A DNA stretch of 64,000 bases from assembly GCA_020746105.1 (NCBI GenBank), contig CM036620.1:28474118-28538117 (forward strand), read 5' to 3'. This document shows positions 55,049-62,645 of the stretch, piece by piece (the stretch's first letter is position 1; the number at the start of each line of letters is the position of its first letter). Position numbers and translations under genes: made by a program. Source of the stretch: Trogon surrucura. Lineage: Eukaryota; Chordata; Aves; Trogoniformes; Trogonidae. Below the pieces are notes generated by a model. That model ran no database searches. It was not told the DNA's origin and worked only from the letters and a program-made list of their open reading frames with translations.

Positions 55049-55365
55049 AGCTGCTATAAACTCAGCCTCCGTGCAGCTGGAGGAGTTTGCTTATTTGTCC
55101 TCAATTACAGGATCAGGGAGTGTGCAGTAAATACGATTAGCTGTCTGGAAGTTTAGCTAAACTGATGGTAGTTGCTGGGATCTGCTGCTGGTGATCTACT
55201 GACCTGTGTGAAAGCCTGCAGTCTTGTGTGGCCACTGGCATTTTTCTTGGGCCATGGCAGAAGTCTGGCTTTGACTTGCAACTCGTTGAAAACAGTCGTA
55301 GCGTTTCTTCACCTGTGGATACAACAATATTGGTGTGAAGGAGATACCAAGTGGGTTGTTGGCAA

Positions 55366-55940
55366 TGTACGGAAAATCACGTTGCCAGAGGTCAGTGTTC
55401 ACAAAGAAGACAGAGGAGTCTTAACTTTATTCGAATAAAGGGAGAGTTCACTGGGGTTGCCAAGTCCCAGTGAGGTCTCTCAAATTGCTGGAGGACGCAG
55501 CCCCCTTTTATCCTAATTTCCCGGCCGCATGAAACCCTCTCCCTTTCCCCATTGGCTGAGGTACTCAGGAGGTACAGACTTCCCGATCCGCCTATTCCAT
55601 GTTCCCCCTTAACATGTACCCCCCTTAACAACATACATCGCATGTTGCATTAACTCCAACTTTATGCCGCCCAGGGCGGAGAAGTTAATATTCATAGGCC
55701 TATTAAGCCTGCGCACTCTTTCTCAAAGTTCAAAAGTTTAGAGCATCCTTGCTGTTGACTTAATTAATAGCCCTAATGGTCAAGGTGTCTTGTTATCTTC
55801 TCCTGCAGGCTGCATTCTGTGACTCCCTAGTTCAGGAAGGACACTCTCCTCTTTGTTCCATTACTAACAAGGAGAAAAACCCCACACACTCCTCTTCTGG
55901 TTTTATCACTTATTTGTAAAGACACTCTCTTATTCTCTCA
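55366..55940 (-). repeat. 3' LTR of the provirus
   Basis: Same 575 bases as the 5' LTR by eye. Its AATAAA is the complement of 55426-55431 and would end retroviral transcripts running antisense to SNCA. Confidence 0.95.
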
Positions 55941-55955
55941 ATCCCTCCTCTTCTT
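55941..55955 (-). other. Proviral polypurine tract
   Basis: The minus strand reads AAGAAGAGGAGGGAT directly before the 3' LTR start TGAGAG. It is the plus-strand primer site of the element. Confidence 0.9.
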
Positions 55956-57018
55956 ATTTCAATATTTGTCTTTACAAAGTTTGGTTATCATTAACCTGAT
56001 TTTCTCCTCCTGATCCACCTTTGGTCTTAGAATTATCATTTGTTCCCAAATTTGATCTTGCATCTTTTGTAATTCTACTACTTTTTTTTCCTACAAAAAA
56101 AAAACAAACCAAAAACCAATGTCTAACAACTAGTGCGCCAGTGTGAAAAGGGAGCAAAAGAGAAAGGAAGAGAGGGAACGAAGCAAAGGCTGAGGGTGAG
56201 CTGGAGGGAAGTCCAAAAGGAAGGGCTGAAAAAAAAAAGCAAGCCAAATAAAGTAGAGGGAAAAAGCACAAAGTAGTCCTTTCTTCCACTTTTATATTAC
56301 GTTTCTTATTCCAAGGGCTCATTTGCTTAAGTCCACCTCCCACCAGCGGTGGTACGCATGCCCAATACCGTCACTGTGGGGGCCTTGCGGAGCAGACCCC
56401 GGGTCTGGGCGCATGCGTGGACTCCAGGTTCGGTTTCTGGGAGTTTGCTTTGTGCACAACGACAGGGAACTCCTAATCTGGCAGTACCCTGTGGCTCAAC
56501 ATTGCTGCTCCTTCTATGTGGTGAGTGGTGGTATGAATGACAGAGGCAGAAGAGGAAGGGGGAAAGAAAGGAAAAACAAAAGAGAAGCAATCGCGCATGC
56601 ACAATGCAAGCTTCGATCGACTTTATAAGAAAATCCAAAATGTATTACAAGTAACAGTATCTTATCTTTTGATATACCCAAAAATCCTTTCCAAAAGTCC
56701 ACACTTTCCACTTTCTTCATCTTCGTCCTCTTATCAGTCCATCATTCTTTAATGCCAATGGTCTTCCATCTTCATTCTTGTTTGCCGAGCATTGCCGAGT
56801 GTCCTCCATCTTGCGTTGTAGCACGTGTCTTCTCGTATATTGCTCAGTCTATTCTTTTCCATGATCCAATCCTGAAACGCTGTTCTGACATTTAACTACT
56901 ACATTAACAACACCAACTATTTAACTGCAAAACCATTAAATGTTCTAACCATAACATATCAAAACTCAAGCAAATACAACTATCAAAACATGTCTTAACA
57001 ACACCAAATATTCTAGGT
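55956..57018 (-). other. 3' non-coding region of the provirus
   Basis: Between the last small ORF and the purine tract. No env subunit is legible. The plus strand carries several CATGC-centred motifs: GCGCATGCGT at 56409-56418, CGCGCATGCA at 56592-56601 and ACGCATGCCC at 56354-56363, with another GCGCATGCGT just outside at 57301-57310. An A-run lies at about 56095-56104. Confidence 0.6.
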
Positions 57019-57210
57019 TTATAAGTTTGTTTCCAATACTGGGGAAGGGGGCGGGGCAGGTGGTTGTTGTTCATCAGAACAATATAACTCGCAACATTCT
57101 CCAAAATGATCACCACAACACCACAACAAACAAGTAAAAACCATCAAAACAAATGCCGCAACAAGTGTTATCCCAGCCAAAACATACAGAGCAATCACCT
57201 CGCTATCCAT
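57019..57210 (-). CDS. Unidentified 63-aa membrane ORF inside the provirus
   Basis: Starts at 57210. It has a short acidic N-terminus, one transmembrane helix (about residues 6-30, VIALYVLAGITLVAAFVLMV), then a cysteine-rich juxtamembrane part (seven Cys between residues 27 and 44, CLLWCCGDHFGECCELYC) and a proline-rich tail. The reading can be extended upstream to an ATG at 57342. I do not recognise it. It could be the transmembrane/cytoplasmic end of env in altered form, an acquired accessory gene, or chance. Confidence 0.35.
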   Translation of the reverse strand: MDSEVIALYVLAGITLVAAFVLMVFTCLLWCCGDHFGECCELYCSDEQQPPAPPPSPVLETNL

Positions 57211-57450
57211 GATAATTTGTCTTTTTGTAACCGCGTTACAGCCGCTGCGCCTTCGCCAAGAGAATGGGGGTCTGCAAAGGTCTACGCCCCCTAGCCCAGA
57301 GCGCATGCGTGGTCTAGAAATTGCTATCCCAAATATAGGCAAGAGTAAATAAACAAGAACTAGTCACGTTACTAATTCCTTATACATAATAAATGTTTTT
57401 AGTTAATATACTTAATAAGGCCAATGTTAAAATAAATCTTTCACAATACT

Positions 57451-57636
57451 CTATGTATGCCCACTAATTTTTCCACTCCGATACTTAACTCTGTTATAGA
57501 GGGGGAGGAAAGAAAATAAAGAAGCAAGAGTTATAATCCATAAAATGCTAATGGCTACACTCTTGGCCTGTTTCACAAACCCGACTTGTTTTACTCCGTC
57601 AGGGGAAGTCACAGCAATTGCCTGCATGTTGCTCAC
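57451..57636 (-). pseudogene. Small membrane ORF, probable env leader of the second series
   Basis: A 61-codon frame with one hydrophobic segment (SVAISILWIITLASLFSFLP) after a polar N-terminus. Its place after integrase suggests an env signal peptide followed by a deletion. No surface-subunit motif is seen. Confidence 0.45.
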
Positions 57637-58099
57637 AACACTCTAGATGAACTATTAAATAGTCCACACACAAAAAAATAATGCTCGTGGTCAACTAGAA
57701 CAAATTGTTTTGATAGTTTCTTCACGTTAGTATGGTGAGGTATGTTCCCCAACTTTGATTGCTGTATCCCCCTTTTCTTGGAAGTTCAGAAAAATCAATT
57801 TGACAGTGGTCCCCTGCTGCGTTCCTCTTAATTGCACTCAGTTACCTTTCCCATCGCCGAGTCACTTGTCGAATTGTAACATATAAATTTATCCCTACTT
57901 ATTTCTGATTTAAAAATGTATACAGAGAGTGCGCCCCTCCATGTGCCTTATTGTGCTCTTTTACAGTTTTCCCTAATTCTGCCATTGCTCAGGTGTGCCC
58001 ATCCTTTGGAGGGAATCTACCCTCTCATTCGTTCTATTAATTCTTTATCAGCTCTAGAGTATTTAATATTTTCCTCATCCAGACTTCTGCTTCTGCTAT

Positions 58100-58340
58100 C
58101 TGAAATTAGTGTTAACATATTCTGAGTTCTTTCTGCTATGAAATGTGGGGCCCATATCTAAAGATAGTCCTATAGACACCCCAAACCTTGGTGCTATTTC
58201 TCCAAGTAATGTTTTTGATACCTCTCTTACTTTATTGGTGCAACAAGGAAAAGCCTCTGGCCAGCCTGAAAAAGTGCCTCTCACCTTACCAGTCTGGCAT
58301 CTGGCTTCAGTTGGGTGGTTACCAGTTCCGCTGCTCAAGA
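58100..58340 (-). pseudogene. Integrase catalytic core fragment, second series
   Basis: Reads FSGWPEAFPCCTNKVREVSK, then LLGEIAPRFGVSIGLSLDMG, including the second Asp of the DDE core region. The N-terminal zinc domain and the rest of the core are missing. Joined to protease-border sequence upstream, so RT and RNase H are deleted. Confidence 0.8.
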
Positions 58341-58499
58341 TCTTCCTGGTGTTTCTGAGGCCCAAACCAGAATTATTACGGTGTTTTCTACTCCCTCTAG
58401 TACCTCCTGCGGCACAGCTTCCATCTGTAACATAAGAACTTGGGCATCCAGACCTTTATTTTCAAGAATATGAACTTGAATTCTTCCTTTTTCCAATAC

Positions 58500-58790
58500 T
58501 GACACAGGACAGTCTGGTAGGAATTGATGGGGCAACCCCCTTTGCCAGTTCTCAATTTCAAAGGCTAAAGAAAACCAGAAACCCTCTGGCTTTTCTCTTT
58601 ACCCTGTGGCACCAATAATTGACTCAGTTTGCTTACTAGAATTACCTTTACATGGGTTTAATACTAAATAAGTAACCCCTGTATCTACTAGAAAATTTAT
58701 TTTCTCATTCCCCAACCTTATTATAACCAGGGGCTTTGTCGGGGAAGGTTCCAGTTCATAACCCTCAGTTTCCTTCAGTCTGAACCCACC
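58500..58790 (-). pseudogene. Protease, second series
   Basis: Reads KPLVIIRLGNEKINFLVDTG, with the catalytic Asp-Thr-Gly at 58677-58685, then a broken frame and PHQFLPDCPVSVL, the region at the protease/RT border. RT itself is not found; within about 170 bp the reading reaches integrase. Confidence 0.8.
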
Positions 58791-58825
58791 ACCATCATGT
58801 TAGCTGTTTGCCCCATTATTCCTTC

Positions 58826-59115
58826 AAATCACTGCTGATTTGGTTGCAAGCATTCTCTTTTTCAGTGCCTCTTCTCTTTGCAAAAGGCACGTTGATCTTT
58901 TTCTAACAGCATTCTGGCCCTTGGCATTCCACCAGGATCTTGCCTGCCTCTCGGAGCCTGAGAACACCCTCCTCCAGCCCTGTTATTGTCCTGGGCTACA
59001 GCCACTGCTAGCAGCTTGCATCGGAGTTTTTCTTTTCTCTGCTTTCCTCCTCCACTTTCTTCCTGTTGTTATACATTTTCCAAGCACACTTCTGTATTTC
59101 GTTTAACAAGTTGGC
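58826..59115 (-). pseudogene. gag capsid end and nucleocapsid, second series
   Basis: Reads a NNRKKVEEES-type capsid end, a linker, and a damaged zinc knuckle (RAFCKEKRH then stop, KREC): the first Cys is Arg and the residue after His is a stop. It is the counterpart of 60120-60500 and shows that this part of gag occurs twice in the provirus. Confidence 0.7.
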
Positions 59116-59255
59116 ATTTTCCCTTCTAACTTCGGTGCTAAGAACCTCCCAGTTCCCACGTTACCTTCTACACCAGGTGTGACAAATAAATACACAGAAG
59201 CAATTCTGCATAAAGCGAGCAGTGACAGCGCAGCTGTGAGCATCAGCCCCCGCAT
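59115..59255 (-). pseudogene. env leader, first series
   Basis: Starts MRGLMLTAALSLLALC, a signal-peptide-like hydrophobic stretch placed after the integrase end, as env is in gammaretroviruses. After about 45 residues the sequence switches to capsid-end sequence of a second series, so surface and transmembrane subunits are absent. Confidence 0.55.
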
Positions 59256-59399
59256 CACTGGAGATTCAAAAGAAGAGAGGTCTTTTCAGACCACTTCAGT
59301 AGATGATCTGTGGGTCAACTCCTGGGGCTCCCCCCGAAGTTGACACACTGACCACTACTCCGGTTCATTCCTGTGAAGAGTAAACCGCAGTCTCCCATA

Positions 59400-59630
59400 C
59401 TTTTCCTCCAGCTTAGAAGTCCAAGTTTCTGGGGCTTTGGAGATCTTGACTCAGGTATGATAAGTCCACCCAGGTTCAGCTGTCTTGACTGCTGATTGCA
59501 GAGTTAACAGTACTTGGTAGGGCCCATGCCACCTTGCCATCAGTGGTGTTTCCTTCCACTCTTTAATTAGGACCCAGTTTCCTGGTTGAATGCCATGGAC
59601 AGCAAAGTCCAAAGGCAGGGTCTGTGCCAG
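59400..59630 (-). pseudogene. Integrase C-terminal domain, first series
   Basis: Reads HGIQPGNWVLIKEWKETPL, then ARWHGPYQVLLTLQSAVKTA and GWTYHT, the DNA-binding C-terminal domain of gammaretroviral integrase. A stop codon follows YHT. The reverse transcriptase, RNase H and integrase catalytic core that should precede it are missing between about 59960 and 59640. Confidence 0.8.
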
Positions 59631-59959
59631 CTGAGCTTCCTGTCAAAGAGATTTTACAAGAGACAGTATTCTGGCCACATACTTGTCTAAGAACACATCA
59701 CTTATCTGCACCTCCCCACTGGGGCCAGAGCTTTGGTTAACCCGCTTTTTAACACGTTAAAGCTGTGCTGCCCCCCCTCCACAGACTGCAGTAACCTAAT
59801 CCATGGAGGCAGAGTAAATTAGCATTCTCTTGCAAAGCTTGCCCAAACAGAACCTGTGGATCCCTGCTGAAGGATCGTTCATATCAATTGTTGGTTTGCT
59901 ATTCTCCCTTTTTCCTCTTTTTCCCACTAAAATAAAAAAAAAAAGTTTACTGTCCTCTG

Positions 59960-60075
59960 TAAACAGACATTCCCAGAAAGCATCCTTTAATTCAAGTACT
60001 GCTCATTCTCCAACTTTACTATTACCAGGGGTTGTGCTGAGGATTCCGATTCATCCTCTTGTCTCACACAGTCTG
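59960..60075 (-). pseudogene. Protease start, first series, truncated
   Basis: Reads SAQPLVIVKLENE, matching the start of the second-series protease (KPLVIIRLGNE). It stops before the catalytic Asp-Thr-Gly box. Confidence 0.6.
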
Positions 60076-60119
60076 TATCTAACATCATACTTCAGTATTC
60101 TTTCAAACCCCACCGACTG

Positions 60120-60500
60120 AATTGTGAGCATTCCGTCCTCCAGTGCTGCTTTTTACAAAAAGCACACCCATCTTTTTCTCAATGATATTCCGACCCTTGA
60201 TGCTCTCCTAGGAAGTTGCCTCCCTACCCCCCGAGGCCTAATAGCCCTGTCCTCTGATTTTATGACTTCCCAGGCTATTGCAGCTGCCAGTATTGCTGCA
60301 CGTTTGTTTGTTTTCGTTTCCCTTTTTTTTTTACTTTCTTTTTCTTTTTCTTTTTTTTTTTTTACTTTTCTTCTTTCCAGCCTTCTCCCTGTTACTATAA
60401 ATTATATATACTATCTCAATCAACTGAGACATTGTCATTCCAGACATTCCGTAACCTTCAGTACCCATTCAGGGTCCTCCCTACGCGTGCCTGCTATCTT
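60120..60500 (-). pseudogene. gag capsid end and nucleocapsid, first series
   Basis: Minus-strand reading gives a capsid C-terminal piece (MSQLIEIVYIIYSNREKAG), a lysine-rich stretch encoded by A-runs, and one zinc knuckle CAFCKKQHWRTEC at 60128-60166. The knuckle spacing is C-X2-C-X3-H-X4-C, one residue shorter than the usual CCHC, so it may be impaired. Frameshifts separate these pieces. Confidence 0.75.
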
Positions 60501-61133
60501 TCCAAGTCTTTAAACCGGGTACCGAAAACAGCACCTTTAACTAAACCAGTTTCCAAACTCTCCTGCCGCCTGTCTGAGAGGGGCTTGTAAACTTTCTCCC
60601 TCACCAGAGTTCTCCGTATCACTGTTCCTTCTTTCTCTCTGTCCTCCATTCGCCCCCCCCTTTCATCCTGTGCAGCCGCTTCTTACTTATTCCTTCTCAG
60701 TCCAGACAACATATTAACATCCTCTACTCCTTCTTCCTCACATTTCTTTTTACATTTGTTGCATTGCCTACCAATGCTACATGATGAACACCACCATGTT
60801 ATTTTCTGCTTTTAACACCAAAACATTGCTATCTTGAACCATTAACCCACAGTCCTTCCTGGATTTTTAATCATTTCTGAGTGTAAAGAAAAGATTTACA
60901 TACAGTATTTCATCCCATTTTCCTTCCCACCAGCAAAATATCATTAATTTCAATATTGTATTACAATTCAGAGTTCCATCTTTCAACAATTTCCCTGATG
61001 TTCAAGAATATACATTGGCCACCAGTTAGTACACCATTCTGTAAGTTGTTTCCAGTTTAGAGGGTCCTCCCTCCCCACTTTTCGCATTGTTACTCTGGCC
61101 AAGAAAAATAACCGAACTTTTCCATTGTTTCAA

Positions 61134-61532
61134 TTATTTTCCAGCCCAGAAAAACAGCAAAACTCTCAAGTAAGGGGGTACTCCAACCCACTTTTTCCCT
61201 ATTTTCCTTTTACATCCTGAGTGGTAAAGTGGCACAATTACAAACCCAGCGCCTCCCCCCTGCCTGTCCAACAGGGCTTGACGCAGACTGCATCCTCCTT
61301 CCAGCTGTAGAAGGAGACACAGTATTCTACCTTCCTCCCCTTTACTGTTCCACTTTCCCAAAAGAGCAGTAATGGCAGCTCCTCCTTCATGTCCCTGATT
61401 CGGGAGTTGGGGATACAAAGATCTTACATCCCCTGGGGGAGGTGGAGGAGCTCGGGGATAAGGAGGAGGGAGATATTGGAACACATCCTCCATATCCTCG
61501 TTATCCTCCCCTTCTCCCTTCCTAAACTTCAA
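61134..61532 (-). pseudogene. gag-like ORF with PPPY late-domain motif
   Basis: A 132-codon frame whose N-terminal third reads YLPPPYPRAPPPPP then LYPQL. PPPY is the budding late domain of gammaretroviral Gag, placed between matrix and capsid. Past about residue 60 the frame no longer resembles Gag, which suggests a frameshift. The matrix start upstream (61540-62040) is not legible; that region is a Gly/Pro-rich leader with a small ORF at 61670-61888. No complete Gag can be read. Confidence 0.6.
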
Positions 61533-62046
61533 CCCTCATTTATTCCCTTTCCCTCTACCCCAAGAGGGAACCATCTATATCCTCTCTTCAGAATATAGTC
61601 TGGCCAGGAAAAACAAAACAAAACAAAAAAACCTTTACCTTTAAGGGAATGTGCAGGCTATCCCAAACCTCAACATTCTCCCCAAGGGAGACTCCGGGGG
61701 TATTTCGGGATCGTCATCCCGAGCGTCGGGGCCCCTTCCCGACAGTCCACTGCCCTCCCTGGGCATCCTTTACTCCCCGAAGTTCCCATACTCACCGGTG
61801 AGTTTTCGCGGTCCTTCCCTTCGGATCGCTTGAGGTACCTCGGGTCCTTTCCGTCGGACCCCTGGCCCTTTCCTTCGGGCCTCTTCACGGACCAACTCGG
61901 TCCGTTACTCGTCTGTCTCCGAACAGTCTCGGGAACCCAATCAGTCGTCCAGTGCCAGCAGCCACGAAAGGGAACTGATCACCGAAATCTTGGTGAGGCG
62001 CGCCGTCAGTCCCGTTCACCGTCTGCTGTCCCTGGAAGGTGGAAGG

Positions 62047-62064
62047 ATCCCGGACGAGCCCCCA
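62047..62064 (-). other. Proviral primer-binding site for tRNA-Pro
   Basis: The minus strand reads TGGGGGCTCGTCCGGGAT, the 18-base complement of the tRNA-Pro 3' end used by murine-leukaemia-type viruses. It fixes the orientation and supports a gammaretroviral origin. Confidence 0.95.
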
Positions 62065-62066
62065 TT

Positions 62067-62641
62067 TGTACGGAAAATCACGTTGCCAGAGGTCAGTGTT
62101 CACAAAGAAGACAGAGGAGTCTTAACTTTATTCGAATAAAGGGAGAGTTCACTGGGGTTGCCAAGTCCCAGTGAGGTCTCTCAAATTGCTGGAGGACGCA
62201 GCCCCCTTTTATCCTAATTTCCCGGCCGCATGAAACCCTCTCCCTTTCCCCATTGGCTGAGGTACTCAGGAGGTACAGACTTCCCGATCCGCCTATTCCA
62301 TGTTCCCCCTTAACATGTACCCCCCTTAACAACATACATCGCATGTTGCATTAACTCCAACTTTATGCCGCCCAGGGCGGAGAAGTTAATATTCATAGGC
62401 CTATTAAGCCTGCGCACTCTTTCTCAAAGTTCAAAAGTTTAGAGCATCCTTGCTGTTGACTTAATTAATAGCCCTAATGGTCAAGGTGTCTTGTTATCTT
62501 CTCCTGCAGGCTGCATTCTGTGACTCCCTAGTTCAGGAAGGACACTCTCCTCTTTGTTCCATTACTAACAAGGAGAAAAACCCCACACACTCCTCTTCTG
62601 GTTTTATCACTTATTTGTAAAGACACTCTCTTATTCTCTCA
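62067..62641 (-). repeat. 5' LTR of the provirus
   Basis: On the minus strand the order is U3, an inverted promoter set of CCAAT (complement of 62252-62256), a TATA-like GGATAAAAGG (complement of 62205-62214), then AATAAA (complement of 62127-62132) and U5 ending CCGTACA. It abuts the primer site after 2 bp. Length 575 bp, the same as the partner LTR. Confidence 0.95.
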
Positions 62642-62645
62642 GCAA

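What the first reader, a model, noticed from the sequence alone, without database searches (positions are those of the whole stretch)
55366..62641. Mosaic provirus: two consecutive gag-NC/protease/integrase/env-leader series between identical LTRs
Reading leftward from the primer site I find gag with PPPY, capsid end and zinc knuckle, protease start, integrase C-terminus and env leader (60.5-59.1 kb). Then comes a second capsid end, zinc knuckle, protease with DTG, integrase core and env-like leader (59.1-57.4 kb). The two series are clearly related but diverged (knuckles CAFCKKQHWRTEC and RAFCKEKRH; protease starts PLVIVKLENE and PLVIIRLGNE), so this is not a recent tandem duplication of one element. 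Recombination between two packaged RNAs, or a non-autonomous lineage built from two elements, would explain it. No RT is present in either series.
Basis: partly seen in the sequence, partly recalled or inferred. Interest (0 to 1): 0.8.

Follow-up and report, generated by a model that had tools for sequence, protein, structure and literature searches.

The report
Parasitic endogenous retrovirus family, one gene
This is one copy of a young family of broken, patched-together endogenous retroviruses that must have spread using another virus's enzymes, and whose only intact gene is a small membrane protein, under selection across element families, that may dock onto host proteins.

Summary
The two-series structure is real, but it is a family trait. 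The provirus (minus strand) has 575/575-identical LTRs, a GCAA target duplication, a tRNA-Pro-type primer site, gammaretrovirus-like protease and integrase remnants and two diverged nucleocapsid/protease copies. The joints near 59.1-59.65 kb recur at 40 of 40 scored places (188 candidates; the window's own included). Of 27 other copies with both LTRs found, 18 have no LTR mismatch and 26 have matching 4-bp duplications. In the 19 closest copies 2575 of 2641 stop-codon cells coincide: gag/pol/env died before the family spread, so it was mobilised in trans. No helper was identified. Assembly error is excluded. Unexpected is a 63-aa ORF (57210-57019): one transmembrane segment, a cysteine cluster, a proline-rich tail, C-terminal ETNL. 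It is intact in 29 of 35 readable copies and has 141 genomic matches, one with a stop. A second repeat family carries a 52-54% identical version (dN/dS about 0.15-0.35) ending ETQL or ETHL, a class I PDZ-ligand pattern: a candidate accessory gene. Its origin and function, and the helper, are inferred. The capsid, integrase-core and env calls were not confirmed.

The parts
62067..62641 (-). 5' LTR (element sense)
   Evidence: 575/575 identical to the other LTR, TG..CA, next to GCAA; CCAAT at 386, TATA-like ATAAAA at 430 (also at 35), AATAAA at 510 of 575
55366..55940 (-). 3' LTR (element sense)
62642..62645 (.). target-site duplication GCAA (5' side of element)
   Evidence: sequence printed; 4-bp duplications also in 26 of 27 other copies
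55362..55365 (.). target-site duplication GCAA (3' side of element)
62047..62064 (-). primer-binding site, tRNA-Pro type
   Evidence: sequence printed; assignment to tRNA-Pro recalled from murine leukaemia virus
61137..61535 (-). gag remnant with PPPY
   Evidence: ORF; no Pfam match
59980..60350 (-). series 1: nucleocapsid-like stretch and protease start
   Evidence: DNA similarity to series 2; stops shared by 19 copies
59454..59642 (-). series 1: integrase C-terminal domain remnant
   Evidence: Pfam MLVIN_C over cut-off; 2m9u E 0.0058; 150 genomic matches scored
   Evidence: no Pfam match
58602..59068 (-). series 2: nucleocapsid-like stretch and protease with DTG
   Evidence: RVP 18.0 bits, below cut-off; 3nr6 E 2e-4
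58099..58598 (-). series 2: putative protease end / RT start joined to putative integrase core (by eye, not confirmed)
   Evidence: frames; no Pfam match, no solved structure for the integrase-core piece
57019..57210 (-). intact 63-aa ORF: single transmembrane segment, cysteine cluster, proline-rich tail, C-terminal ETNL
56355..57309 (.). stretch around the ORF with all four CGCATGC sites of the 64-kb window; short collinear similarities to the second repeat family
55941..55960 (-). polypurine tract
   Evidence: sequence printed

Best explanation
A young, multicopy, non-autonomous class I (gammaretrovirus-like) ERV family. Shown: intact LTRs, primer site and purine tract; dead gag/pol/env pieces in a fixed two-series order; many independent recent insertions that share the same lesions. 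Inferred: the two-series interior arose by template switching between two related, co-packaged RNAs, and the RNA is packaged, reverse-transcribed and integrated in trans by proteins of an autonomous gammaretroviral ERV. Shown for the gene family, inferred for function: the element also carries one intact small gene for a single-pass membrane protein, conserved across repeat families and ending in a class I PDZ-ligand pattern; the likeliest role is host-protein targeting at a membrane that favours the element or its helper.
For: Same joints at 40 of 40 scored places, the window's own included, 90-100% identical. The 19 closest other copies are collinear over 3.8 kb at 96.7-99.9%, one of them (L027) in two pieces. 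27 of 39 other copies had both LTRs found; 18 of 27 have no LTR mismatch, four of these with one or two gap positions, and 26 of 27 have matching 4-bp duplications. 2575 of 2641 stop-codon cells of the window copy, all three frames of five pieces, are stops in those 19 copies too, so the decay came before the spread. ERV1 elements have 4-bp duplications (PMC6523648, passages). Integrase and protease remnants are gammaretroviral. Small ORF: 141 matches, 1 with a stop inside the matched stretch, against 21 of 150 for an equally long dead integrase piece (p 6.6e-6); between the two families dS is 1.0-3.0 (near saturation, so imprecise) and dN 0.38-0.49; 5000 neutral simulations at d 1.4 never exceed 27% amino-acid identity, against 54% observed.
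Against: No helper found: relatives of the integrase piece at or above 60% identity lie in frames of at most 167 aa, and those in longer frames (to 1173 aa, leaving out one 28,338-aa frame taken to be masked N) are 38-55% identical (150 of 322 candidates scored). The LTR/leader search did not complete. Inside the window's own family the ORF is not clearly more conserved than its flanks among young copies, and one within-family pair gives dN/dS 0.71 on seven changes. Older copies (L103-L106, L122) and L093 have lost the ETxL end, and L091 its start codon. Transcription, translation and PDZ binding were not tested.
Confidence: 0.88

Rival explanations
1. Assembly error or a chance nesting of two separate proviruses at this one place.
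For: A single unusual structure would look like this before other copies are seen.
Against: 40 of 40 scored places on many contigs cross the same joints; 26 of 27 testable other copies have their own matching target duplication.
Confidence: 0.01
2. The second series is an internal duplication of one element that later diverged, not material from a second element.
For: The two series are homologous and in the same order.
Against: They match at only about 68-87% over short stretches, while copies of the family are 90-100% identical over the joints, so the divergence predates the family; as far as could be read, the flanking pieces differ between the series (integrase C-terminus only in series 1, protease middle only in series 2).
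Confidence: 0.2
3. The small ORF is a passive passenger: it stayed open by chance because the family amplified recently.
For: Young copies are too similar to show constraint; one within-family pair has dN/dS 0.71; several of the nearer matches end early, so their C-terminus is out of frame.
Against: Gag/pol/env frames of the same element carry many shared stops, while none of the 77 matches at or above 74% identity has a stop inside its matched stretch (counted by hand, one broken copy giving two pieces); the second family shows dN/dS 0.15-0.35 against the window copy.
Confidence: 0.2
4. The small ORF is a captured host gene, or part of an env cytoplasmic tail, rather than a retroviral accessory gene.
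For: CGCATGC sites cluster around it, as in a cellular CpG promoter (resemblance recalled); it lies between a putative env remnant and the 3' LTR.
Against: No Pfam family over its cut-off, no relative at E 1e-3 in the protein database (10 candidates) or in viral contigs; its genomic matches come in repeat tiers, although a spliced host gene could be missed.
Confidence: 0.3

Closest known systems
Bovine ERVK[2-1-LTR] D-type elements, with MusD/ETn and KoRV-A/RecKoRV as cited there (PMC10924933, abstract and section 20 read)
   Same: Defective elements with intact ends, a central segment replaced by old retroelement sequence, and spread by trans-complementation that can outnumber the helper
   Different: Those pairs have known helpers; here none is found. 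Here the interior is two diverged NC/protease series and one open small ORF remains; D-type elements are described as lacking functional genes
Mosaic human ERVs (PMC4724089, outline and abstract seen)
   Same: Recombinant (mosaic) ERVs, some of which proliferated after the recombination
   Different: Those are human groups; here the spread is very recent (18 of 27 LTR pairs without a mismatch) and the same joints recur at every scored place
VL30 and other defective, packaged gammaretrovirus-like elements (recalled, not tested)
   Same: Non-coding class I element packaged by a related virus
   Different: No sequence comparison made
HTLV-1 Env and Tax, with class I PDZ ligands (PMC4810129, passages seen); Vpu and MMTV Sag as other small or 3'-encoded accessory proteins (recalled)
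   Same: Retroviral proteins with a C-terminal S/T-x-hydrophobic motif (Env, Tax); a small single-pass membrane protein (Vpu); a gene at the 3' end (Sag)
   Different: No direct sequence comparison with these was made; PDZ binding here is untested

Membership tests
Class I ERV (ERV1, gammaretrovirus-like) | TG..CA LTRs and 4-bp target duplication | tested here: met
   26 of 27 other copies; criterion from PMC6523648
Class I ERV (ERV1, gammaretrovirus-like) | gammaretroviral integrase C-terminal domain and protease | tested here: met
   MLVIN_C over cut-off; protease matches 3nr6 E 2e-4, though RVP is below its Pfam cut-off
Class I ERV (ERV1, gammaretrovirus-like) | position of RT in a tree with gammaretroviruses | not testable with these tools
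   no RT domain in the 15 frames scanned
Class I ERV (ERV1, gammaretrovirus-like) | tRNA-Pro-type primer site | tested here: met
   sequence; tRNA assignment recalled
Non-autonomous ERV mobilised in trans | intact cis parts (LTRs, primer site, purine tract) without coding gag/pol/env | tested here: met
Non-autonomous ERV mobilised in trans | many insertions that share the same lesions | tested here: met
Non-autonomous ERV mobilised in trans | identified autonomous helper sharing LTR/leader | tested here: inconclusive
   integrase-based search shows only 38-55% relatives in frames over 167 aa; LTR/leader search not answered
Class I PDZ-ligand protein | C-terminal S/T-x-hydrophobic | tested here: met
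   ETNL/ETHL/ETQL in the 8 members aligned; of the six short stretches fetched, L122 was left out of that alignment because it lacks the motif, as do L093 and L103-L106; class definition from PMC4810129
Class I PDZ-ligand protein | binding to a PDZ domain | not testable with these tools
   needs a binding assay

The most novel reading that the evidence does not exclude
A previously undescribed retroviral accessory gene: a 63-68-aa single-pass membrane protein with a conserved C-terminal PDZ ligand, carried by at least two ERV (or repeat) lineages of one genome. It is the only gene kept by a lineage that discarded gag, pol and env, so a parasite-of-a-parasite would carry its own effector, for example to act on host membrane or polarity proteins.
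Probability: 0.45. Interest if true: 0.82.

Novelty: new variant of a known kind. Interest (0 to 1): 0.62.

Why it matters
Defective ERVs that outcompete their helpers are thought to shape how ERV families rise and die (PMC10924933, abstract). A very young family with a fixed mosaic interior is a clean case for dating and tracing such parasitism. A small gene kept open while the virus genes around it are dead would be unusual: it makes 'what does a non-autonomous ERV still need to encode?' directly testable, and it hints at an accessory gene class outside the known retroviral ones.

Tried and rejected
Rejected: assembly error and a single recent recombinant. Tried without result: Pfam, solved-structure, protein-database and viral-contig searches for the small ORF (the viral-contig tool warns that records of this or very near genomes may be left out); solved structures for the putative integrase core (one search used a wrong frame, another the frame read); comparison of eight window pieces with the eight best RT loci (L001-L008), only three matches at E 0.28-0.59. 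In one search the second family's locus L115 gave no match to those RT loci. The 539-aa frame beside the ORF in L115 holds an RT and looks like a CR1 LINE (recalled, not tested); it is on the other strand and treated as a neighbour. A TG..CA scan for an LTR in L115 gave 15 candidate pairs and no decision. In one search the frame 56370-55975 gave 7tm_3 at E 0.00039 but 20.6 bits against a 33.5 cut-off; taken as chance. Papers: PMC10924933 outline, abstract and section 20; PMC4724089 outline and abstract; PMC6523648 and PMC4810129 passages; others seen only in search listings. None of the titles or abstract openings in those listings describes this family or ORF; that is the limit of my claim about print. 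PMC6112702 is not held. One search's second comparison used a miscounted number; one search replaces it.
Full report
What the window holds. A provirus lies on the minus strand between 62641 and 55366. Its LTRs are 575/575 identical, begin TG, end CA, and are flanked by GCAA on both sides. The next bases hold a primer site of tRNA-Pro type (tRNA assignment recalled) and, at the other end, a purine tract. The LTR has CCAAT, a TATA-like ATAAAA and AATAAA in a plausible order.

Two series. Comparing the two halves directly gives two collinear DNA matches, one at the nucleocapsid-like stretch (95/140) and one at the protease start (26/30). Of 500 dinucleotide shuffles none reaches the better score and one exceeds the weaker. 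Integrase C-terminus and protease are supported by profile or structure-sequence matches. The protease is below Pfam's own cut-off, and the other named pieces (capsid ends, integrase core, env leaders) have no significant retroviral match. They may be right but remain readings by eye.

A family, not a mosaic accident. An 801-base query across the joints scored 40 of 188 candidate places, the window's own among them. All 40 align over the whole query or all but one base at an end, at 90-100% identity. The 19 closest other copies are collinear with the window copy over 3.8 kb at 96.7-99.9%, one of them in two pieces. For the 39 other copies I fetched both ends. Both LTRs were found in 27; in the other 12 at least one was not found in the fetched stretch. 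Of the 27, 18 have no mismatch between their LTRs (four of these have one or two gap positions) and the other nine have 1 to 17 mismatches. 26 carry a matching 4-bp duplication, the exception being L045. So these are separate, mostly very recent insertions.

Dead before it spread. Across five pieces and three frames, 2575 of 2641 cells (a stop of the window copy, in one of the 19 closest other copies) are stops there too (summed). A lineage that has lost gag, pol and env and still inserts must borrow those proteins. This matches the C/D-type pattern in cattle, which its authors compare with MusD/ETn and KoRV-A/RecKoRV: intact flanks and a centre swapped for old retroelement sequence (PMC10924933, section 20). 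Recombination between co-packaged RNAs is the ordinary source of such joints, but I did not find the parents.

Helper. Searching with the integrase piece scored 150 of 322 candidates. Matches at or above 60% identity lie in frames of at most 167 aa. Matches inside longer frames, up to 1173 aa, are 38-55% identical; I left out one frame of 28,338 aa, taken to be a masked run of N. Distant gammaretroviral relatives with long pol frames therefore exist, but no close autonomous relative was seen among those scored. A helper may share only the LTR and leader; that search did not complete.

The surviving gene. Between the putative env remnant and the 3' LTR, at 57210-57019, lies a 63-aa ORF with a strongly hydrophobic segment at residues 6-24, a cysteine cluster, a proline-rich tail and the end ETNL. 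Of 40 other copies examined, 35 cover the ORF fully; 29 of these are intact from Met to the ETxL end and 6 are not (L091 lacks the start; L093, L103, L104, L105 and L106 are broken). In the genome it has 141 matches among 150 scored of 151 candidates, and one has a stop inside. By my count of the rows, 77 are at 74% identity or more (one broken copy, L093, gives two pieces, and several others end before residue 63) and 64 at 38-52%. The same-length integrase piece has stops in 21 of 150 (p 6.6e-6). In the nearer tier it is 8 of 62 against 0 of 77 (p 0.0012). That control is imperfect, because some integrase relatives are themselves in long open frames, and because a frameshift shortens a match without showing as a stop.

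Selection. The second family, seen in L115 and in five of the six short stretches I could still fetch (L117-L121, out of 141 matches), is 52-54% identical to the window ORF in the L115 comparison. Between the two families dS is 1.0-3.0, near saturation and so imprecise, dN 0.38-0.49 and the ratio 0.15-0.49; against the window copy itself it is 0.15-0.35. Distant pairs inside the second family give 0.18-0.38; close pairs are noisy, up to 1.04 on five changes. Neutral simulation to 1.4 substitutions per site keeps the frame open in 248 of 5000 runs but never exceeds 27% amino-acid identity. Results against: within the window's own family young copies show no clear dip in divergence at the ORF; in older copies the blocks from 57450 to 56926 are 2.4-4.8% diverged and those beyond 2.9-9.0%. 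L120 and L121 have altered N-termini.

The C-terminus. The eight members aligned end E-T-(N/H/Q)-L although the stretch before it varies in length. That is a class I PDZ-ligand pattern, S/T-x-hydrophobic, found also at the ends of HTLV-1 Env and Tax (PMC4810129). The sixth short stretch, L122 (77% tier), lacks it and was left out of that alignment; L093 and the older copies L103-L106 lack it too. The pattern is short and binding is untested.

Surroundings. The similarity to the second family is not confined to the ORF. Short collinear matches run from 57311 to 56486, including CAGCAATGTTGAGCCACAGGGT at 20/22; several are individually weak, and the same list holds non-collinear and low-complexity matches. 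All four CGCATGC sites of the 64-kb window, both strands, lie at 56355-57309, which suggests, without proof, a local promoter. Three pairs of second-family hits lie about 5.3 kb apart on the same strand, as they would if the ORF sat in an LTR. This was not resolved, and L115 alone does not show that the second family is an ERV.

Verdict. As a non-autonomous ERV it is a new variant of a known kind. The small conserved membrane-protein gene is the part a specialist would not expect; its role is open.

Noticed in passing
window 57019-57210 (minus): Intact 63-aa membrane-protein ORF with C-terminal ETNL; 141 genomic matches in at least two repeat families. Became the main new finding.
   Followed up: yes
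G000 C67:53139973/53145330, C1:91211728/91216981, C10:41359069/41364414: Pairs of second-family ORF matches about 5.3 kb apart on one strand, suggesting that the ORF lies in an LTR there.
   Followed up: partly
G000 C1:16706732, 16713790, 16720848 and C145:1421, 8199: Regularly spaced ORF matches (7058 and 6778 bases apart), perhaps tandem proviruses.
   Followed up: no
G000 C60-C63 and C43: These contigs hold older or broken copies and many RT and integrase matches; they may be a sex-limited, ERV-rich chromosome (inference; compare PMC8310711, listing only).
   Followed up: no
window 56355-57309: All four CGCATGC sites of the 64-kb window cluster here; resembles NRF-1 sites (recalled).
   Followed up: partly
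5' LTRs in L044, L045, L072, L073, L074, L075, L077, L078, L079; 3' LTR in L099: A second LTR subtype with a changed start (AAGTAG after TGAGAGAATAAGA) (ten copies looked at).
   Followed up: no
L045 (5' end) and L065 (3' end), one copy: Its 5' LTR is of the second subtype and its 3' LTR of the window's type, with 13 mismatches and no matching target duplication: perhaps a later recombination between copies.
   Followed up: no
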